Below are positions 35,616 through 54,494 of a stretch of 64,000 nt of DNA, one piece after another. Both the position numbers and the translations under genes were made by a program. Under the pieces are notes generated by a model. It had not been told where the DNA came from. It saw only the letters and a program-made list of their open reading frames with translations, and ran no database searches. The stretch spans positions 1 to 64,000 of the forward strand of contig WSYC01000014.1 of NCBI GenBank assembly GCA_009773635.1, written 5' to 3'. The stretch's first letter is position 1, and the number at the start of each line of letters is the position of its first letter. This DNA comes from Beijerinckiaceae bacterium (GTDB taxonomy: Bacteria > Pseudomonadota > Alphaproteobacteria > Rhizobiales > Beijerinckiaceae).

Positions 35616-35692
35616 TGGTACAGTCGGGTGGTCTCGAACCACCGACCTTCGGTACCACAAACCGACGCTCTAACCAACTGAGCTACGACTGC
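35616..35692 (-). tRNA. tRNA-His (anticodon GTG)
   Basis: The minus strand folds into a full cloverleaf: acceptor GCAGTCG/CGACTGT (first pair G-U), D arm GCTC...GAGC, anticodon stem TCGGT/ACCGA with loop TTGTGGT giving anticodon GTG, and T arm GGTGG-TTCGAGA-CCACC. CCA is encoded. The discriminator base is A73 and the extra G at -1 is not encoded in the usual paired form, as known for most Alphaproteobacteria. Confidence 0.95.
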
Positions 35693-35812
35693 GCATCGAG
35701 GAAGCGTTGACTAACTTCAATCGCCGCGGATTTCAAGGCGGCATTTCAGACCCGGACAAATTGTTTACGGTGGGATGTCCAGAACGACGCCCCAACCTTC
35801 CGGGGCCATGTC

Positions 35813-35840
35813 AAAAAAAAGCGCGGGCCGAAACCCGCGC
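35813..35840 (-). terminator. Rho-independent terminator of the phasin gene
   Basis: Read on the minus strand, GCGCGGG and CCCGCGC form a 7-bp GC stem with a 6-base loop, followed by a run of eight T. It lies 40 bases after the phasin stop codon. Confidence 0.9.
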
Positions 35841-35879
35841 CTTGAAATGTTTGCCTCTGCCGATGGCAGAAACCCGAGA

Positions 35880-36401
35880 TCAGCTCTTGAACGGAATAAC
35901 CATCGACGCCTTGACCGGCTCGACGACATCCGTCGCAACCTTCTGGGCGATCTCACCGAGATGCTTCGACTGCGCCTGAAGCGTTTCAACCTGGGCCTTG
36001 GCAAAATCCTGCTGCAACTTCACGGCATCAGCAACGGTCTTCGCGGCGAACAGCGCCTGCATGTGTTCGAAGCCGGCGTTGGTCTGCGTGCGGAAAAGGT
36101 CGAGAACCTTCATGTTGAAATCGCGGGTGCCGGCGTGGGCAGCCGTCATGCTCGCTTCAAGCTTGTCGGTCGCCGATTCGGCGTTGCCCTTGAGCGTGGC
36201 GTAGTGCGACCGGAGCTGCTCGATGCCCTTCTCGGCATTGGCGCGAACCTTTTCCTGCATGTCCGCGAACGGCTTCATCAGGTCCGAGGCAGCAGCGGTG
36301 ACGGCAGCGGTCGCGGCCTGTGTGTTGGCAACGGTCTGCTCGACAACAGTGGTTGCGGCGTCTTCGATCGTCTTGGTGACAGGCTTTTTGGCGATGGCCA
36401 T
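35880..36401 (-). CDS. Phasin family protein
   Basis: The 173-residue protein is a helical phasin expected on polyhydroxyalkanoate granules. It shows the Phasin_2 core (FADMQEKVRANAEKGIEQLRS, FNMKVLDLFRTQTNAGFEHMQALFAAKTVADAVKLQ, LGEIAQKVATDVVEPVKA). The ATG at 36401 has a strong AAAGGAG Shine-Dalgarno. The longer open frame upstream crosses the tRNA-Thr and is not coding. Two tandem TGCA-type palindromes lie about 130 bases upstream and a strong terminator lies downstream, so the gene is a single transcription unit. Confidence 0.9.
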   Translation of the reverse strand: MAIAKKPVTKTIEDAATTVVEQTVANTQAATAAVTAAASDLMKPFADMQEKVRANAEKGIEQLRSHYATLKGNAESATDKLEASMTAAHAGTRDFNMKVLDLFRTQTNAGFEHMQALFAAKTVADAVKLQQDFAKAQVETLQAQSKHLGEIAQKVATDVVEPVKASMVIPFKS

Positions 36402-36527
36402 GGTGATTCTCCTTTGAAAAGCGGAAAACTCCCCAGAGAGCTTCCCCGAAATGAATGCGGCCCAGCCATGGCGGAAGGTTTCGCTTCCGGTCTTGCCTGC
36501 CGACGCGATGCAGGTAGCCGATTTTTT

Positions 36528-36559
36528 GTTGCAATGCAACATTTTTGTGCGGTGCACAA
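36528..36559. promoter_or_regulatory. Two adjacent TGCA-core palindromes upstream of the phasin gene, candidate PhaR operator
   Basis: GTTGCA-A-TGCAAC (36528-36540, perfect 6-1-6) and TTGTGC-GGT-GCACAA (36545-36559, perfect 6-3-6) lie 4 bases apart in an AT-rich stretch where a promoter is expected. PhaR, the PHA-responsive repressor, is known to bind TGC/GCA palindromes before phasin genes. The pairing of sites suggests cooperative binding. Confidence 0.6.
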
Positions 36560-36641
36560 TTTTTCCTGAGGTCAGAATGTCACCTTCTCTGTATCCGTGC
36601 TTGACCTTACGGTCGTCCGTGTGGCAATGGGCGTCCTCGTT

Positions 36642-36710
<69 letters not shown>

Positions 36711-36716
<6 letters not shown>

Positions 36717-46508: not shown

Positions 46509-47090
46509 TCAGCCTAGCTTTGCCATCGCATCGTCGATGATCGAGGCGAGCAAGGCTTCATCCGGGCGGGACCGGATCAGCACCAGCAATCCCGACAGGG
46601 AGGCCAGAAGCCCTTTGGCGATGCGCGGCGGGTTCAGCGCCGGAGACATTTCCCCGAGTTCCTGCCCCCGAAGGATCATTCGATGAAAGAAATCCTCGAT
46701 CTGCTCCTGAGCATGCGCAACGATGCTTCTGATTTCCGGATCGTGCGCCGCCAGTTCCAGCGCCGTGTTGGTCATCAGGCAACCCGCAGTATCGCCCTTT
46801 TCCAACAGGCCTGTCGAAAAGCAGACAAGCAATTCCCGGATTGCGTGGCGCGGGGAATGCTCCGCCTCCAGCTCGCTGAGGATTTTCCGGCGAATATCCT
46901 TGTCGTATTTCCCAAGCGCGGCCAGGAAGAGCGCGCGCTTGTCGCCATAGGTGCCATAAAGGCTCCCGCGGTTAATGCCGGTGCTGTCGATGAGATCCTG
47001 GACGGACGTCGCCTCATAGCCGCGCTCCCAGAAGGTGCGCATGGCCTTGGCCAGCGTTTCGTCGACATCAAATTGCTTGTTCGGCGGCAT
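46509..47090 (-). CDS. TetR/AcrR family transcriptional repressor
   Basis: The product has an N-terminal helix-turn-helix (FDVDETLAKAMRTFWERGYEATSVQDLIDSTG region, then NRGSLYGTYGDKRALF) and a C-terminal TetR_C ligand domain with a lone cysteine (DTAGCLMTNTALELA), as in electrophile-sensing NemR-like repressors. An upstream Met at 47111 exists, but GAGGAACGAA is correctly placed for the ATG at 47090 (193 residues). It is co-directional with the AhpD-like and MBL genes, with a perfect palindrome between. Confidence 0.87.
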   Translation of the reverse strand: MPPNKQFDVDETLAKAMRTFWERGYEATSVQDLIDSTGINRGSLYGTYGDKRALFLAALGKYDKDIRRKILSELEAEHSPRHAIRELLVCFSTGLLEKGDTAGCLMTNTALELAAHDPEIRSIVAHAQEQIEDFFHRMILRGQELGEMSPALNPPRIAKGLLASLSGLLVLIRSRPDEALLASIIDDAMAKLG

Positions 47091-47118
47091 TTCGTTCCTC
47101 GTTACGACCATATGTCAC

Positions 47119-48577: not shown

Positions 48578-48603
48578 GTAACGAAAACCTGCCTTTTTGC
48601 GAA
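48578..48603 (+). promoter_or_regulatory. SigF-type promoter GTAAC-N17-CGAA before the YHS gene
   Basis: GTAAC at 48578-48582 and CGAA at 48600-48603 are separated by 17 bases. This matches the GTAACC-N16-CGAA consensus reported, as I recall, for the Caulobacter ECF factor SigF. The -10 element lies about 68 bases before the YHS start. The same spacing occurs before bufA. Confidence 0.75.
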
Positions 48604-48671
48604 TTCCGGATAGCAGCCGATTTTTGTGGCGGCTCAACGATCCATCTGGATTTCAAAGAGGAACGATCATC

Positions 48672-49184
48672 ATGGCAAATGCGACCAAAACGATCCTGCG
48701 GCGATCGGTTCTCGCTCTGGGTCTCGGCCTCGCGGTGGTGGCGACCCCCATAAACCTGGGGACCGCCTTCGCATACGACGAAGGCTCCGAAAGCGCCATC
48801 AATGTGGATGGCAAGGGCATTGCGCTGCGCGGATACGACCCCGTGGCCTACTTCACGCTCGGCAAGCCGACGCCGGGAGATGCCAAGTTCACAGCCAAGC
48901 ATGACGGGGCGACCTATCACTTCGCCAGTGCCACCACCCGCGATGCCTTCACCAGGGAACCTGCCAAGTTTGCACCGGCCTTCGGCGGTTATTGCGCCAT
49001 GGGCGCCGTCTTCGAGAAGAAGCTCGATGGCGACCCCAATCTCTGGAAGATCGTCGATGGCAAACTCTATCTGAATGTCGGCGAGCCCGCGCAGAAGCGC
49101 TGGCTGGAAGACACCAAGGGCAACATCTCCAAGGCGGCGGTGAACTGGCCGAAGATCAGGGACAAGGCGCCCAAGGAACTCTGA
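48672..49184 (+). CDS. Exported YHS-domain protein
   Basis: The 170-residue protein has a signal peptide (RRSVLALGLGLAVVATPINLGTAFA region) and a YHS-type domain: GIALRGYDPVAYF, AKHDGATYHFASATTRDAF, FAPAFGGYCAMG. YHS domains bind metals, and exported versions often accompany copper-handling genes. AGAGGAACG precedes the ATG at 48672. A SigF-type promoter lies upstream and sigF-nrsF downstream in the same direction, so it is probably part of that regulon. Confidence 0.85.
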   Translation: MANATKTILRRSVLALGLGLAVVATPINLGTAFAYDEGSESAINVDGKGIALRGYDPVAYFTLGKPTPGDAKFTAKHDGATYHFASATTRDAFTREPAKFAPAFGGYCAMGAVFEKKLDGDPNLWKIVDGKLYLNVGEPAQKRWLEDTKGNISKAAVNWPKIRDKAPKEL

Positions 49185-49191
49185 TGCCCAG

Positions 49192-49227
49192 CCCGGCAGG
49201 TCTGTTCCGTTCGACAGGCCTGCCGGG
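49192..49227 (+). terminator. Hairpin between the YHS gene and sigF
   Basis: CCCGGCAGG and CCTGCCGGG pair over 9 bp, extended by an inner CTGT/ACAG stem. It begins 8 bases after the YHS stop. Without a T-run it may attenuate rather than end transcription into sigF. Confidence 0.5.
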
Positions 49228-49312
49228 TCTCACCGGTCCATCTCGGACATGTGATGATGCCGTGGCATGCAACGGAAGTAATCTCTCCGGATATTGCAGG
49301 CTGGGCACCGCC

Positions 49313-49849
49313 ATGATGATGCGCGAAGAAGAACTGAAGCACTATCTGGTTCTTGCCAATGCCGGCGATGAAACAGCCTATCGGATGTTTTTCAACGCGT
49401 TGCTTCCCGCATTGAGGATCCTGGCGACGGCTGCGATGTCTCGCACCTCTCTGCCGGCCGCCGATGCGGAGGATATCGTGCAGGAGACGCTGGTAGCGTT
49501 GCATCAGAAGCGTCACACTTTTGATCCCGCCTATCCTGTGGGGCCCTGGGTTCGCGGTATCGTACGGCACAAACTGCTCGATGCGCTCCGCAGGCGGCGC
49601 GTGGTCCATGTTCCCATTGAAGACTTCGACGACCTGCTGCCGATCTCGCCCTCCGAAACGAGAGACGATATGGCGGAAGTCATCAAGCTGGCTGAAGGTT
49701 TGCCCGTTCGCCAGCGGGACGCGGTTCTTGCGGTTGTCCAGGGATTCTCGGGCAGGGCCGCTGCGGCGCGTGCTTCAATGACGGAAGGCGCTTTTCGTGT
49801 AGCGCTCCATCGCGGGATTAGCCGTCTCGCACGCATGGTAGAGGGGTAG
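49313..49849 (+). CDS. sigF: ECF RNA polymerase sigma factor of SigF type
   Basis: The 178-residue protein has sigma-2 (YRMFFNALLPALRILATAA, AEDIVQETLVALHQKRHTFDP, PWVRGIVRHKLLDALRRRR) and sigma-4 (LPVRQRDAVLAVVQGFSGRAAAARASMTEGAFRVALHRGISRL). Three consecutive ATG codons at 49313, 49316 and 49319 are possible starts. Its partner nrsF follows after 4 bases. In Caulobacter the SigF/NrsF pair controls bufferin genes, and the same association is seen here with matching promoter elements. Confidence 0.88.
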   Translation: MMMREEELKHYLVLANAGDETAYRMFFNALLPALRILATAAMSRTSLPAADAEDIVQETLVALHQKRHTFDPAYPVGPWVRGIVRHKLLDALRRRRVVHVPIEDFDDLLPISPSETRDDMAEVIKLAEGLPVRQRDAVLAVVQGFSGRAAAARASMTEGAFRVALHRGISRLARMVEG

Positions 49850-49853
49850 GATT

Positions 49854-50483
49854 TTGACACGGGATACCGAGGACCTGATCCATCAACTTGCCCGTCAAGG
49901 CGTGTCTTCGCGCGCGGAAACTCCACCGGGCCTCTCGTATACGGTCATGCTGGGTGTGTTGCCGGCGATCGCCATCTTCCTGATTTTCTTCGGGTTCCGG
50001 CCTGATTTCATGCAATCGCTCGCGAACCCTTATTTTGTTCTGCGCGGGATGTTTCTGGCCGCGCTGGCCGCGGTCTGCCTCACGCTCATTCCTCCGGTCG
50101 GACGTCCTGGTGCCGTCATCCCGTGGCACCGACTGCTCTGGGCCCCGTCGATCCTGGTGCTTGGTCTTGTGGCGGAACGCTTCGGTTGGGATCCCGCCAT
50201 GAATACCGTTTCCGCCCCCGCCTGGGTTTGCATCACAGGAATAGCGAGCCTCGCCGCCTTCCCCATCCTGGCGTTGTTGCTGGCTGTCAGGCGGCAGGCT
50301 GCGACGCAGCCCGAACTTGCCGGCGCCATTTCAGGGCTAACAGGCGGAGCGATCGGCGCGACGCTCTATGCTCTCTGGTGCGCTGAAACCAGCCCCGGCT
50401 ATGTTGCGCTCTGGTACGGGCTTGCCCTTGCGATCTGCGCCGCAGCGGGAGCGCTTGCCGGGCGGCATTTGCTGCGTTGGTGA
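49854..50483 (+). CDS. nrsF: NrsF family (DUF1109) membrane anti-sigma factor
   Basis: The 209-residue protein has six hydrophobic helices and the DUF1109 pattern (short N-terminal cytoplasmic segment, SYTVMLGVLPAIAIFLIFFGFRPDF, LIPPVGRPG, SGLTGGAIGATLYALWCAETSP). NrsF proteins hold their ECF factor at the membrane until a signal, reported to involve membrane cysteines, releases it. WCAETSP and VCITG each supply one cysteine. The start appears to be TTG at 49854, just after GAGGGGTAGG. The stop lies 10 bases from the convergent tlpA stop. Confidence 0.88.
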   Translation: MTRDTEDLIHQLARQGVSSRAETPPGLSYTVMLGVLPAIAIFLIFFGFRPDFMQSLANPYFVLRGMFLAALAAVCLTLIPPVGRPGAVIPWHRLLWAPSILVLGLVAERFGWDPAMNTVSAPAWVCITGIASLAAFPILALLLAVRRQAATQPELAGAISGLTGGAIGATLYALWCAETSPGYVALWYGLALAICAAAGALAGRHLLRW

Positions 50484-50492
50484 CGCGGGATT

Positions 50493-51080
50493 TCAGTCCC
50501 GTCGGGATGCGCTCTCAAGCAGCGCGCGGGCCTGCGGGGATTGCCAGTCCACCAGCCCCGTGAAGTAGCCGAGGTTTCGTCCACCCGGCGAGAGCACATA
50601 GCTGAGCGGCAAGCCAAAAAGCCGGAACGGATCCTGCGGCGTCGCTTCATCGGCCCGTTTGGCAACGCGGAAATCCGGATCGAGAAACACCGGCAGATCC
50701 CGCACTTTCAGCTCGGCCAGATAAGGTTTTACGGTTTTCGCGCCACCCTGATCAAGCGAAATCGCGATCACGCGAACGCCCGGCGGGTCCTGTGTGCGGG
50801 CGAGAGCATCAAGCATCGGGATTTCGCGCCGGCAGGGTGGGCACCAGCTCGCCCAGAAATTCACGATCAGCACATTGCCCTGATAGGCTGACAGCAGCAC
50901 CTCCTTGCCATCGAGGCGCTTGAGCCGGAAATCCGGCACGCGCTCCGCCGGCTCGAATTCCACGAACTGCCCCCGTCCCTCCCGAAGTGTCGGCAGGCGA
51001 GGAGCAGATTGCGACAAAGCCGGGCCAGCGACCGCGCCTGCTGCACCGGCCAGGAGGATGCGACGGGAAATCTGGTGCAT
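50493..51080 (-). CDS. Exported TlpA-like thiol:disulfide oxidoreductase
   Basis: The 195-residue protein has a Tat-like N terminus (ISRRILLAGAAGAVAGPALSQ) and a thioredoxin fold with the WCPPC motif (Cys80, Cys83) in NFWASWCPPCRREIPML. AGGAAAG precedes the ATG at 51080; a longer frame exists. It is the last gene of the bufferin operon, 46 bases after the DoxX gene. A periplasmic thiol reductase would suit the maturation or maintenance of Cys-derived metal-binding groups. Confidence 0.88.
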   Translation of the reverse strand: MHQISRRILLAGAAGAVAGPALSQSAPRLPTLREGRGQFVEFEPAERVPDFRLKRLDGKEVLLSAYQGNVLIVNFWASWCPPCRREIPMLDALARTQDPPGVRVIAISLDQGGAKTVKPYLAELKVRDLPVFLDPDFRVAKRADEATPQDPFRLFGLPLSYVLSPGGRNLGYFTGLVDWQSPQARALLESASRRD

Positions 51081-51126
51081 CACTTTCCTGTCCCGAATCC
51101 CAGGTGCTTCTTCCGGTAACTCTTCA

Positions 51127-51651
51127 TCAGCGCATCCTCGCAATCAGATGGTCGAGCGAGAGCCAGCCGGCCCCTTTCGCCATCAGGAACAGCAGCACAA
51201 CCGCCCAGGTGCCGTGCAGCGGATAGGCACCGGGGTAGACAAGCACCTGAATCACAAGGGTCATGATGAGAAGCGCGAAGGCGGAAAGCCTTGTGGCCAA
51301 CCCTAACAGGATCAGGACAGGGAAAATATGTTCGGCGGTGGTGGCCAACACGGCCGAAATCTCCGGCGGCAGGAACGGCAGCTTGTATTCGTCGCGGAAG
51401 AGGTCAACCGTCGTTGCCCCAAGCCTTGGCCAGCCCAGCGTGAAGGTTCCCTCGATCAGATCGATCGCCAGTCCCTCGACCTTCGTCTGCCCGGATTTCC
51501 AGAACACGGCAGCGATGGAAAAGCGCGCCAGAAGGGCGGTGAACCAATCCGGAATAGCGGAGAAAAGACGATGCACTGCGGCGATCAGCCGCGTGATGAA
51601 GCCGGGTCCGGCTTTGTTGAGGTCAATGAGGGAGTTCTCAGATCGGGCCAT
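51127..51651 (-). CDS. DoxX family membrane protein of the bufferin operon
   Basis: The 174-residue protein has four predicted membrane helices and the DoxX/SURF4 pattern (LLARFSIAAVFWKSGQTKVEG, AEHIFPVLILLGLATRLSAFALLIMTLVIQV). It overlaps the 3' end of the DUF2063 gene by 14 bases. DoxX proteins regularly accompany DUF692/DUF2063/DUF2282 genes (as bufD in Caulobacter). Their role there, perhaps in electron or metal transfer at the membrane, is not settled. The longer upstream frame lies inside the DUF2063 gene. Confidence 0.85.
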   Translation of the reverse strand: MARSENSLIDLNKAGPGFITRLIAAVHRLFSAIPDWFTALLARFSIAAVFWKSGQTKVEGLAIDLIEGTFTLGWPRLGATTVDLFRDEYKLPFLPPEISAVLATTAEHIFPVLILLGLATRLSAFALLIMTLVIQVLVYPGAYPLHGTWAVVLLFLMAKGAGWLSLDHLIARMR

Positions 51652-52417
51652 GTTCGGCGTCCTTTTCCAGAGTAACGGCTTCGGTTGCGCCGCTTTCCAG
51701 CAGCAACGCCAATGCGCCCGGCAGATCGAATGTCTCATCGCCCGGCAGCGCTTCCTGAGCGCCGACGCCAAGTGGTTGACCGGCAAGCACCGACGAGAAA
51801 AACGGGAATGCGCCCTGCGGGAGCCGATAGATCCGCACAGCAAAATCGGGCCTCGTGATCAACACGGTCTCGGGTCGTGCGGGATCGATATCCCCGAGAT
51901 CACCTTGCCCGTGATGTGCGAACCAGAGCGAGGCCACCGCAAACGCCGACGTGATGATGCGGGTCGCCGGATGCGCCCGGAAGCGAAGATCGGCGAGTTG
52001 CTCGGAGACAAATGTCGCGAGCAAACCCGGCTCGAACGGCGCGGCATCCGCTGCGTGAAAGGCCTCGACCTGAAGGAATTCGAGACGCGCGAGATCGGCG
52101 AGGTAAGGCAGGCTTGCTGCGGGGCCGAAGGCACGCACGAAATCAGGAAATTCTTCGCCATAGCCAGACATGATCGGGCTTTTCGGCGGGTGAACCAGCA
52201 CGAATTCACGCGCCATGGCGGCAAAGAATTCGTCACCCACCATCTGCCGCACAACCGGGAAGGTCTGCGCGAGTGCATCGCAGAGCGAGACCGTGACATT
52301 GTTGCGATAGACATTGAAACGACGCGAGGGGATTCGCCCGCCCTCCTTGCGCAACCCCGAGGGGGGCGGAACGTTCGGGTCAACAAGCGCCCGCGAAAAA
52401 TCGACTTGTCCGCTCAT
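51638..52417 (-). CDS. bufC: DUF2063 protein BufC, partner of the MNIO enzyme
   Basis: BufC/HvfC proteins bind the precursor leader and deliver it to the BufB enzyme. The 259-residue product has the DUF2063 N-terminal segment (RFNVYRNNVTVSLCDALAQTFPVVRQMVGDEFF, MAREFVLVHPPKSPIM, YGEEFPDFVRAFGP) and a variable C-terminal domain of about 130 residues. The Met at 52417 overlaps the bufB stop in ATGA. Coupled bufB-bufC translation is the rule in these clusters. Confidence 0.88.
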   Translation of the reverse strand: MSGQVDFSRALVDPNVPPPSGLRKEGGRIPSRRFNVYRNNVTVSLCDALAQTFPVVRQMVGDEFFAAMAREFVLVHPPKSPIMSGYGEEFPDFVRAFGPAASLPYLADLARLEFLQVEAFHAADAAPFEPGLLATFVSEQLADLRFRAHPATRIITSAFAVASLWFAHHGQGDLGDIDPARPETVLITRPDFAVRIYRLPQGAFPFFSSVLAGQPLGVGAQEALPGDETFDLPGALALLLESGATEAVTLEKDAEHGPI

Positions 52418-53355
52418 GCCCGATGGCCGGTATTCTGCCGCTTCTCGAGCGCTTCCGCGTGGAGGATCTCCCCGGCCCGGCGCGCTTCGGACATCAGCTC
52501 GGCAAGCGGCGGCACATCGTTGTCCCACTCGATCAGCGTCGCGCAGGGGCCCATGCGGCGGACGAGGCGCGCATAGAGCACCCAGACATCCGCATCGACA
52601 GGGCGGTCATGACTGTCGATGAGAAGCCTGTCTCCGAGATCATCCTGATCTTCAGCATGCCCGCCGAGATGGATCTCGCCCACAGCCTCGACCGGAAAGG
52701 CATCAAGGTAGGCAAACGGATCACGGCGATGGTTGACGCAGGAAACCTGCACGTTGTTGACATCGAGAAGCAGCCCGCAGCCGGTCCGCCGCGCTATCGC
52801 AGCCAGAAAGTCGACCTCGTCCATCGTGCTCGACGAGAACTCGACGTAGGTGGAAGGATTTTCCAGCAGCATGCGACAGCGCAGATACTCCTGCACCAGA
52901 TCGATGTGATCGCAGACCCGATCAAGCGTGTCCCGATTGTAGGCAACCGGAAGCAGGTCGTTGAAGTAGGCCACATCGTGGCTCGACCAGGCGAGATGCT
53001 CGGAAAACGAGGCTGGCTCGTAGCGATCAATGAGGAGCCGCAGGCGGTTGAGATGCTCTCTGTCGAGCGGCCGCTCGCCCCCGATGGACAGCCCCACCCC
53101 ATGCAGCGAGATCGGGTAGAGCTCCCGCAATCGCCCGAGCTGGAAATGAGGCAACCCGCCGGCGCCCATGTAGTTTTCCGCATGCACTTCCAGAAAGGCT
53201 GGCCGATGAGTGCCATCAACCAGCCCGTCGAAGAAATCCGGCTTGAAGCCGATGCCCACGCCGGCAGGAAGACGCGGCACGCTTGAAAACCGCATGGTTT
53301 CAGCCCCCGAAGGATCGGGATCTGGTGATTTTCCGGATTGGAGCCGATCAGACAT
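52414..53355 (-). CDS. bufB: DUF692 multinuclear nonheme iron oxidative enzyme BufB
   Basis: BufB (MNIO family) modifies cysteines of a ribosomal precursor peptide, forming thiooxazole-type rings in bufferins. The 313-residue TIM-barrel protein has the expected metal-ligand segments: LEVHAENYMG, SLHGVGLSIGG, FSEHLAWSS, LENPSTYVEF, LLLDVNNVQVS, GEIHLGGHAED, IDSHDRPVD and LIEWDNDVPP. AAGGA with a 5-base spacer selects the ATG at 53355 over an in-frame Met at 53382; 53295 is also possible. It lies 59 bases after the bufA gene. Confidence 0.9.
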   Translation of the reverse strand: MSDRLQSGKSPDPDPSGAETMRFSSVPRLPAGVGIGFKPDFFDGLVDGTHRPAFLEVHAENYMGAGGLPHFQLGRLRELYPISLHGVGLSIGGERPLDREHLNRLRLLIDRYEPASFSEHLAWSSHDVAYFNDLLPVAYNRDTLDRVCDHIDLVQEYLRCRMLLENPSTYVEFSSSTMDEVDFLAAIARRTGCGLLLDVNNVQVSCVNHRRDPFAYLDAFPVEAVGEIHLGGHAEDQDDLGDRLLIDSHDRPVDADVWVLYARLVRRMGPCATLIEWDNDVPPLAELMSEARRAGEILHAEALEKRQNTGHRA

Positions 53356-53414
53356 CGCGTCCTTGCCCTGCGGATAGTCCATGCGCTGCTGGCGGAATTG
53401 TTCGGCAGGAGACC

Positions 53415-53711
53415 TCAGGCCTTCTTTTCCTTGAATTCCTTCAACTGGCCAAAGCCGGTCGAGGACGCCGGTGAGGCAGTCTTGGGGCAGGTGCCCTTCG
53501 GTACGAGCTTCCAGGCGTTCCCCTGGTAGTCAATTTTCGAGGTGCCGGCGCATGTGGTCCCGGGCCCGGCGGCGCAATCGTTCTTGCCCTTCAACGAGAC
53601 GCCGAAGCATTTCTCGTTGGCGGCGTCCTGCGCCTGAGCCGGCAATGAAACGCTGGTCACGGCGGCGGCAACGGAAACGGCCAGCGCCAGATTGATCGAA
53701 CGACGATCCAT
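53415..53711 (-). CDS. bufA: BufA1-type bufferin precursor (DUF2282)
   Basis: The 98-residue precursor has a signal-like N terminus ([24 protein letters not shown]) that doubles as the recognition leader. The mature part has four cysteines (Cys35, Cys46, Cys54, Cys75) in [26 protein letters not shown] and PKGTC, followed by a charged tail. This is the DUF2282 pattern. In bufferins some of these cysteines are converted to copper-binding thiooxazoles and the others form a disulfide. AAAGGAG precedes the ATG, and a SigF-type promoter lies about 44 bases upstream. Confidence 0.9.
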
Positions 53712-53754
53712 GATGTTCTCCTTTGAGCAAGGCCAATCGGGCCTGCGAGAGGAG

Positions 53755-53780
53755 TTCGCTGTTTCATGGCGGATTGTTAC
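53755..53780 (-). promoter_or_regulatory. SigF-type promoter GTAAC-N17-CGAA before bufA
   Basis: On the minus strand, GTAAC (complement of 53776-53780) and CGAA (complement of 53755-53758) are 17 bases apart, identical in spacing to the element before the YHS gene. The -10 lies 44 bases before the bufA ATG. A second, 16-base-spaced GTAAC/CGAA pair lies upstream at 53856-53880. Confidence 0.75.
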
Positions 53781-53993
53781 ATGTTCACGTCTTCGTGAAG
53801 CCAGAGACCTCCACCGCCGGCTTTTGCGACGACAAAAACCCGCAGTTTTCGCGCATTCGCTGGTGAGCCGGGTTTGTTACAAGGGCTCACATCAAATAAA
53901 TGTGCGGATCGGCGAAGTGCATTTCCGGGCGATTGGCTTCAGGATCAAGGATCGATGAAGCCCAGTTCGAGAGACCCGGAGGGAGCCGTTGCC

Positions 53994-54494
53994 ATGAAAT
54001 CCATTGATCGCAGAAGCCTGATCGGCATCACCGGCAGCCTTTTTCTCGCAATTCCCACTGCCTCTCTGGCTCAGACTGCCCCGATGGCTGCCCGGCAGGG
54101 GTGGATCGTCAAATCCACCGCGCACGGTTTTGCGACGCTGGTTGGCAGGCTTGACGAGTCCGTGAAGGCCAACAAGATGGGGCTGGTGACTGTCGCGAGT
54201 GCATCGGATGGCGCAAAGGCGCAAGGGTTCACAATCCCCGGCAATCGCGTTGTCGGCGTCTTCCGGAATGATTTTGCCCGGCGCATGCTCGCAGCCAGCA
54301 TTCCTGCGGGGATCGAGGCCCCGATCCGCTTCTACATCACCGAGAACGCAAACGGCACGTCCACGCTGTCCTACAAGACGCCGGGCACCGTCTTTGCGCC
54401 CTATTTCGACGGTGCGGCAGCCGATCTGAAAACGCTGGCGGCCGAACTGGATGTGATTTTTGCAAAAATCGCCGAGGACGCAACCAAGCCTTGA
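53994..54494 (+). CDS. Exported DUF302 family protein
   Basis: The 166-residue protein has a Tat-like signal (DRRSLIGITGSLFLAIPTASLAQ) and a DUF302 domain (VKSTAHGFATLVGRLDESVKANKMGLV, FRNDFARRMLAASIPAGIEAPIRFYITEN, VFAPYFDGAAADLKTLAAELD). DUF302 proteins are small periplasmic or cytosolic proteins of unsettled function, found near redox and metal genes. It is divergent from bufA. GGAGGGAGC before the Met at 53994 supports this start. No GTAAC/CGAA promoter reads toward it. Confidence 0.82.
   Translation: MKSIDRRSLIGITGSLFLAIPTASLAQTAPMAARQGWIVKSTAHGFATLVGRLDESVKANKMGLVTVASASDGAKAQGFTIPGNRVVGVFRNDFARRMLAASIPAGIEAPIRFYITENANGTSTLSYKTPGTVFAPYFDGAAADLKTLAAELDVIFAKIAEDATKP

What the first reader, a model, noticed from the sequence alone, without database searches (positions are those of the whole stretch)
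48578..54494. Bufferin biosynthesis locus joined to a SigF/NrsF unit and a YHS protein
BufA (four Cys, DUF2282), BufB (DUF692 MNIO), BufC (DUF2063), DoxX and a TlpA thiol reductase form one operon convergent with sigF-nrsF. Bufferins are copper-binding modified peptides described recently in Caulobacter. Here the operon also carries an exported WCPPC protein, and the regulon seems to include a YHS protein and possibly a DUF302 protein, which extends the known system.
Basis: partly seen in the sequence, partly recalled or inferred. Interest (0 to 1): 0.75.

Follow-up and report, generated by a model that had tools for sequence, protein, structure and literature searches.

The report
Copper-buffering peptide operon with recurring partner
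This stretch holds a standard bacterial copper-buffering peptide (bufferin) operon with its usual stress switch, plus an exported YHS-domain protein that also sits beside or inside bufferin operons in several unrelated bacterial families and so looks like an overlooked part of the system.

Summary
The genes are real. BufA (DUF2282, four Cys), BufB (MNIO), BufC (DUF2063), DoxX and a TlpA-like protein form one minus-strand operon, tail to tail with sigF-nrsF; a YHS gene precedes sigF. Bufferin plus SigF/NrsF is ordinary: 38 of 46 bufA+bufB loci fetched from the family carry sigF, and Caulobacter work describes it. What holds up beyond that: two SigF-type promoters (GTAAC-N16/17-CGAA) lie upstream of bufA and one upstream of YHS, 3 of 15 exact sites in the 3.24-Mb genome. 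YHS genes lie within 5 kb of bufA in 13 of 131 fetched loci (12 after dropping one probably incidental case; about 0.45 expected), 9 of them directly upstream of bufA on the same strand, in six other families. My searches found no paper linking YHS to bufferins. TlpA is a rare add-on (one close parallel in 131 loci). DUF302 is not supported. The 'exported WCPPC protein' is the TlpA itself. Copper binding, modification and the roles of YHS and TlpA are untested. Verdict: new variant of a known kind; the YHS link is the part that adds something.

The parts
48578..48603 (+). SigF-type promoter of the YHS gene, GTAAC-N17-CGAA, about 70 nt upstream of the ATG
   Evidence: relative L136 has the same element before its YHS gene
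48672..49184 (+). exported YHS-domain protein (NF041384), one conserved Cys in GGYCAMG
   Evidence: alignment of 14 proteins printed before that script stopped on an error
49313..49849 (+). ECF sigma factor, SigF type; no SigF motif of its own found
   Evidence: motif scans
49854..50483 (+). NrsF anti-sigma factor, conserved C126 and C176 (50 apart, like Caulobacter C131/C181)
   Evidence: 42-row alignment; PMC3511200
50493..51143 (-). TlpA-like exported thioredoxin, WASWCPPC; likely start at 51080; rare add-on
   Evidence: parallel in L145
51127..51651 (-). DoxX / HvfX-type membrane protein, no cysteine
   Evidence: HvfX model under its cut-off
51638..52417 (-). BufC, DUF2063 partner of the MNIO enzyme
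52414..53382 (-). BufB, MNIO (DUF692) bufferin maturase
   Evidence: every column at least 93% conserved among 121 BufB rows is kept
53415..53711 (-). BufA, DUF2282 bufferin precursor with signal peptide and four Cys
53755..53780 (-). SigF-type promoter proximal to bufA (N17)
53856..53880 (-). second SigF-type promoter, distal to bufA (N16)
53994..54494 (+). exported DUF302 protein, divergent neighbour; judged NOT part of the system
   Evidence: no DUF302 hit (51 loci) and one weak hit (80 loci)

Best explanation
A stress-switched bufferin operon. In unstressed cells the membrane protein NrsF holds SigF. Excess copper, or another thiol-reactive stress, disturbs NrsF cysteines C126 and C176 and frees SigF. 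SigF then transcribes bufA-bufB-bufC-doxX-tlpA from two GTAAC-N16/17-CGAA promoters and the YHS gene from a third. BufB with BufC oxidises the two central cysteines of BufA to thiooxazoles, and mature BufA chelates copper in the periplasm. The exported YHS protein is an accessory periplasmic component of the same response, most likely a thiol-redox or copper-handling protein acting through its single conserved GxC cysteine. TlpA is a lineage-specific thioredoxin that could reduce the YHS cysteine, the BufA outer disulphide, or NrsF. Shown here by sequence: gene content, promoter-type sites, conserved residues, recurrence of YHS. Taken from work on relatives: SigF/NrsF switching, copper induction, thiooxazole formation. 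Inferred: the roles of YHS and TlpA.
For: Family assignments. BufB columns conserved at 93% or more and the four BufA Cys are kept. NrsF C126/C176 match the Caulobacter pair C131/C181 in spacing (PMC3511200). SigF-type sites: 3 of 15 exact genome-wide sites lie here, 2 before bufA and 1 before YHS; the reversed control pattern has 47 sites in the genome. Across 131 loci, 51 of 107 sites precede bufA and 31 precede sigF; of 29 reversed-control sites 1 precedes bufA and 1 nrsF. YHS: within 5 kb of bufA in 13 of 131 loci, 12 without L186, 0.45 expected by chance; directly upstream of bufA and co-directional in 9 loci of six other families, 8 of which also have bufB; YHS-bufA-bufB-bufC-doxX-sigF-nrsF on one strand in Thalassobaculum plasmid NZ_CP139716.1 (the same locus as L251). 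In the clustering of flanking ORFs the YHS family tied for most lineages (9 units) with a generic ABC-transporter ATPase cluster. In a 37-row tree 13 of 14 locus-linked YHS domains fall in one weakly supported half. Copper induces the SigF regulon and a sigF mutant is copper-sensitive in Caulobacter (PMC8224329, passages).
Against: No expression, copper or mass data for this organism. YHS proteins are common outside bufferin loci: 82 plasmid records match, and the 4 stretches I opened show no annotated bufferin genes. Of 131 loci 118 show no YHS, though some stretches end at a contig edge. The nine operonic YHS genes have no SigF motif of the form searched, so SigF control of YHS rests on the window, L136 and perhaps L129. 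The window's sigF has no SigF motif within one mismatch. Inducers differ among relatives: no induction of the Sinorhizobium unit by H2O2, Cd or chromate (PMC6180224, passage), and the Cupriavidus gig genes did not affect copper resistance, perhaps because of other copper determinants (PMC8224329, passage). Several NCBIfam models hit under their cut-offs.
Confidence: 0.72

Rival explanations
1. Plain bufferin operon; YHS and TlpA are bystanders or unrelated SigF-regulated stress genes with no role in bufferin making or function.
For: The core in print is bufA, MNIO, DUF2063, doxX, with other genes in 'extremely low proportions' (PMC12452194, section read). YHS is a common family found alone elsewhere. 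Only 1 of 131 loci has a close TlpA.
Against: YHS lies within 5 kb of bufA in 12 to 13 of 131 loci in about nine lineages, 9 of them immediately upstream of bufA with gaps of 0-151 nt between stop-to-stop frames, against 0.45 expected.
Confidence: 0.3
2. The locus answers mainly to oxidant or reactive-chlorine stress, not copper; SigF/NrsF relatives switch on methionine or thiol repair, and YHS and TlpA repair oxidised thiols.
For: A related sigma/anti-sigma pair responds to hypochlorous acid in Brucella (PMC8315932, abstract and one section), and sigF/nrsF goes with hypochlorite defence in perchlorate reducers (PMC4623255, passages). The Caulobacter sigF mutant is impaired against oxidative stress in stationary phase (cited in PMC8224329). 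The YHS family has selenoprotein members with a GxU motif (PMC13188914, passage), which suggests a redox-active Cys.
Against: In Caulobacter the sigF mutant is copper-sensitive and the regulon copper-induced (PMC8224329), and the regulon is not induced by agents that generate reactive oxygen (PMC3511200, abstract). The two Oxidored_molyb (yedY-type) genes of this genome, on contig C5, are not at any of the 15 exact SigF-type sites. A methionine-rich peptide was not searched for.
Confidence: 0.2
3. The YHS protein is a second substrate of BufB/BufC: an exported protein in the precursor position whose single conserved Cys is modified.
For: In 9 loci YHS sits in the precursor slot just before bufA. 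MNIO enzymes are suspected of modifying proteins and tandem precursors (PMC12452194, sections read).
Against: One conserved Cys and no bufferin-like Cys spacing in the 14-protein alignment. One of the nine, L249, has no bufB in its stretch. YHS genes also lie far from bufferin genes in the same genomes.
Confidence: 0.07

Closest known systems
Caulobacter vibrioides SigF/NrsF regulon with Buf1 locus CC3254-CC3257
   Same: Same four core genes in the same order, same kind of sigma/anti-sigma pair, same promoter element, conserved NrsF cysteines (PMC3511200, sections read)
   Different: Window has sigF-nrsF convergent with the operon, adds tlpA at the operon end and a YHS gene with its own SigF-type site; no YHS, TlpA or DUF302 is in the table of sigF-dependent genes
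Sinorhizobium meliloti RpoE7 (ECF16) unit
   Same: Promoter GTAAC-N17-CGAAT and a DUF692/DUF2063 target operon (PMC6180224, passages)
   Different: No occurrence of YHS or thioredoxin in the main text
Thalassobaculum sp. OXR-137 plasmid NZ_CP139716.1 locus
   Same: YHS, bufA, bufB, bufC, doxX, sigF, nrsF together
   Different: All on one strand with YHS first; no TlpA annotated in the stretch
gig operons (Cupriavidus, Legionella)
   Same: Called bufferin BGCs in PMC12452194
   Different: Compared only through the literature; not aligned here

Membership tests
Buf1 bufferin BGC | DUF2282 precursor with signal peptide and four conserved Cys | tested here: met
   the signal peptide is read by eye from the sequence
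Buf1 bufferin BGC | MNIO enzyme of the bufferin maturase type | tested here: met
   NF050167 368.6 bits over cut-off 310; conserved columns kept
Buf1 bufferin BGC | DUF2063 partner and DoxX in the operon | tested here: met
   (Pfam over cut-offs; the NCBIfam HvfC and HvfX models under theirs)
Buf1 bufferin BGC | Central Cys turned to thiooxazole and copper bound | not testable with these tools
   needs expression and mass spectrometry
SigF/NrsF (ECF16) regulation | ECF sigma beside an NrsF-family protein with two conserved Cys | tested here: met
   the NCBIfam NrsF equivalog is under its cut-off; helices not counted
SigF/NrsF (ECF16) regulation | GTAAC-N16/17-CGAA promoter before target operon | tested here: met
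SigF/NrsF (ECF16) regulation | SigF promoter before sigF itself | tested here: not met
   no match in 49181-49320 within one mismatch; read-through from the YHS promoter is possible
SigF regulon member: YHS | SigF-type promoter conserved in relatives | tested here: inconclusive
   present in window and L136; L129 at uncertain distance; absent in L117, L186 and the 9 operonic cases
SigF regulon member: DUF302 | SigF-type promoter | tested here: not met
   none on the + strand between 53711 and 53994 within one mismatch
TlpA/ResA thioredoxins | WCxxC in an AhpC-TSA-type domain, exported | tested here: met
   (TlpA 1jfu 3e-21); export read by eye

The most novel reading that the evidence does not exclude
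An exported YHS-domain protein is an overlooked, repeatedly recruited functional component of bufferin copper defence in Alphaproteobacteria: a periplasmic thiol-redox or copper-transfer partner of mature BufA, switched on by SigF in this family, and in some lineages kept reduced by a co-transcribed TlpA.
Probability: 0.45. Interest if true: 0.6.

Novelty: new variant of a known kind. Interest (0 to 1): 0.42.

Why it matters
The bufferin core is described as precursor, MNIO, DUF2063 and DoxX (PMC12452194), and what happens to a copper-loaded bufferin in the periplasm is not settled in what I read. A protein that recurs beside and inside these operons in about nine lineages gives a direct handle: delete it, pull it down, ask whether it loads, unloads or protects BufA. 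The window's YHS protein has no match among solved structures by sequence, so this would also give that family a biological setting.

Tried and rejected
DUF302 as a regulon member: no promoter, not conserved (one weak hit, L215). L244's TlpA-like hit is a peroxiredoxin-like protein and was not counted. WCPTC thioredoxin-like proteins near L124, L144 and L183 are not close to the window TlpA and were not counted. L186's YHS (4.4 kb away, no bufB in the stretch, another part of the tree) was treated as incidental and dropped from 13 to 12. Structure of YHS from one sequence: mean pLDDT 37.5, discarded, no fold search made. Selenocysteine in a YHS relative: the in-frame TGA in G476 is not at the conserved Cys and the copy looks broken, so the Sec argument rests on a paper's table only. 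Motif hit at 47080-47105: inside the tetR frame, taken as chance. The other 11 of the 15 genome-wide sites were looked at; most lie inside long frames and none fronts another bufferin gene. First paper search for 'bufferin' matched 'buffering' and was useless. PHROGs: no hits for three proteins. A DoxX-TlpA pair resembling MauE-MauD was considered from recall and left: the window DoxX has no cysteine.
Full report
What is there. The window carries, on the plus strand, YHS (48672-49184), sigF (49313-49849) and nrsF (49854-50483), and on the minus strand bufA (53415-53711), bufB (52414-53382), bufC (51638-52417), doxX (51127-51651) and a tlpA-like gene (50493-51143, likely start 51080). Family models support each assignment, with several NCBIfam equivalog models under their cut-offs. 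The minus-strand genes overlap or lie close together, so one operon is likely. It is tail to tail with sigF-nrsF.

Is it a working bufferin locus? BufA has the four cysteines conserved among 138 aligned BufA rows; BufB keeps every column conserved at 93% or more among 121 BufB rows, and the NCBIfam bufferin-maturase model scores above its cut-off. NrsF has C126 and C176, 50 residues apart like Caulobacter C131 and C181, whose substitution loosens repression of the regulon (PMC3511200, abstract and sections). Nothing here tests modification or copper binding.

Promoters. The Caulobacter SigF element is GTAACC-N16-CGAA (PMC3511200), and the Sinorhizobium RpoE7 sites read GTAAC-N17-CGAAT (PMC6180224, passage). 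Exact GTAAC-N16/17-CGAA occurs 15 times in the 3.24-Mb genome; the same pattern read backwards occurs 47 times. Three of the 15 are at this locus: 53755-53780 and 53856-53880 before bufA, and 48578-48603 before YHS. A fourth window site, 47080-47105, lies inside a tetR frame; the other 11 are elsewhere in the genome, and by eye none fronts another bufferin gene. At that density a site in a given 100-bp upstream stretch has a chance of about 2 in 10,000 (arithmetic). In the 64-kb window alone the one-mismatch N17 pattern is twice as frequent as in shuffles (14 against 6.3) and the N16 pattern is not enriched (4 against 6.2), so it is the exact sites and their places that count. In 131 loci from relatives, 107 exact sites fall 51 before bufA, 31 sigF, 4 bufB, 2 YHS, 1 doxX and 18 elsewhere; 29 reversed-control sites fall 1 before bufA, 1 nrsF and 27 elsewhere. 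The window's sigF has no such site; the gap between YHS and sigF holds a GC-rich hairpin that the terminator scan did not report, so sigF may be read from the YHS promoter or from another one. DUF302 has no site on its strand.

How ordinary is it? DUF2282 is found in 50 of 149 family genomes and 135 of 385 class genomes. I fetched 51 stretches covering the 49 other positive family genomes and 80 stretches from 79 class genomes outside the family, the latter taken roughly from the top of a score list that was itself cut off, and not chosen by neighbours; some end at contig edges. Of the 51, 46 have bufA and bufB, and 38 of those 46 have sigF; of the 80, 72 and 14. So bufferin with SigF/NrsF is the rule in this family. 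In the genus 2 of 17 genomes, this one included, carry DUF2282, so the locus is accessory here; the other one's contig starts just before bufA and shows no YHS, TlpA or sigF.

What recurs. A clustering of non-core ORFs near the operons put the exported YHS family at the top by lineage count, 9 units and 13 loci, tied with a generic ABC-transporter ATPase cluster of the kind single linkage tends to produce. Placement: in 9 loci from families f43, f53, f106, f108, f124 and f156 YHS is directly upstream of bufA on the same strand (8 of the 9 have bufB; L249 has bufA and doxX only); in L117 and L129 it lies downstream of doxX on the same strand; in L136, as in the window, it is a separate unit with its own SigF-type site; in L186 it is 4.4 kb away and probably incidental. 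Chance expectation is 0.45 loci within 5 kb, from 59 YHS matches in 40 genomes, a sample enriched for linked genomes and so conservative; Poisson P is about 1e-13 for 12 loci and 5e-7 for 7 independent units. Related genomes are not independent, so the second figure is the fairer one. A tree of 37 YHS domains (14 locus-linked; 23 of the 28 unlinked matches in 11 genomes) needs 6 label changes against 11.4 for shuffled labels, with 13 of 14 linked rows in one half whose branch is weakly supported (86/74): neither one origin nor random. A public example is NZ_CP139716.1, with YHS, bufA, bufB, bufC, doxX, sigF and nrsF on one strand.

Against. No YHS was found in 118 of 131 loci. YHS proteins are frequent without bufferin genes nearby. 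The nine operonic YHS genes show no SigF motif of the searched form.

What YHS may do. The YHS domain of a mycobacterial adenylyl cyclase makes that enzyme copper-responsive, attributed to one Asp and three Cys (PMC4626032, abstract). The window protein has one conserved Cys, in GGYCAMG, so that copper site is not shown to exist here. A 2026 table lists NF041384 among selenoprotein families with a GxU motif (PMC13188914, passage), which matches GxC and hints at a redox cysteine; my own in-frame TGA case did not bear this out. The single-sequence structure was useless. I therefore prefer a periplasmic thiol-redox or copper-handling helper, as inference.

TlpA. One close parallel, L145 (43% identity over 192 residues, same place after doxX), in 131 loci; a lineage-specific add-on.

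Literature. PMC12452194 (abstract, introduction, bufferin section, discussion and a term search of the main text; not its supplements) names the core genes and sigma/NrsF and has no occurrence of YHS, TlpA, thioredoxin or DUF302. A search for YHS terms with MNIO, DUF2282, bufferins or MbnB found 18 papers holding two or more terms (16 listed), none of the listed ones holding both kinds; three more YHS searches showed none in their listings. PMC8224329 (passages) reports copper induction of the SigF regulon and copper sensitivity of a sigF mutant in Caulobacter. The library holds open-licence papers only, and the original bufferin paper was not read.

Verdict. The YHS link is the part worth following.

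Noticed in passing
plasmid collection; L264: BufB relatives are on many enterobacterial plasmids: 73 Escherichia, 18 Klebsiella and 8 Salmonella records of 355 with a match (the listed ones about 52% identical); the one opened has tetR-bufA-bufB-bufC-doxX and no sigF in the stretch.
   Followed up: partly
window 36000-58000: GC is 57-63% per 2-kb bin just after tRNA-His and tRNA-Thr (35616-36716), against 62-68% in bins of 1-36000; with 2 of 17 genus genomes carrying DUF2282 this may be an acquired island, though no mobility gene was among the nine proteins scanned.
   Followed up: partly
window 53711-53900: bufA has two exact SigF-type promoter sites about 100 bp apart with different spacers (N17 and N16).
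   Followed up: no
own genome, L167 and L170: Two of the other exact SigF-type sites lie just before frames that by eye (recalled, not searched) look like Fe-S assembly proteins (A-type carrier and SufB), a known copper target; probably chance, as the second starts only 11 nt after the site.
   Followed up: no
L136 3000-9486: Close relative locus: YHS with SigF-type site, bufABC without a detected doxX, a peroxiredoxin-like gene (by eye) next to YHS, sigF-nrsF behind bufA.
   Followed up: partly
L118, L128, L145, L194: Some loci carry a second, opposite-strand bufB-bufC pair beside the first.
   Followed up: no
L124, L144, L183: Another thioredoxin-like protein with WCPTC lies near bufferin genes in three lineages.
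   Followed up: no
window 49190-49230: GC-rich hairpin between YHS and sigF (the 49180-49320 stretch folds 3.8 sd below shuffles), possibly a processing site or attenuator.
   Followed up: no
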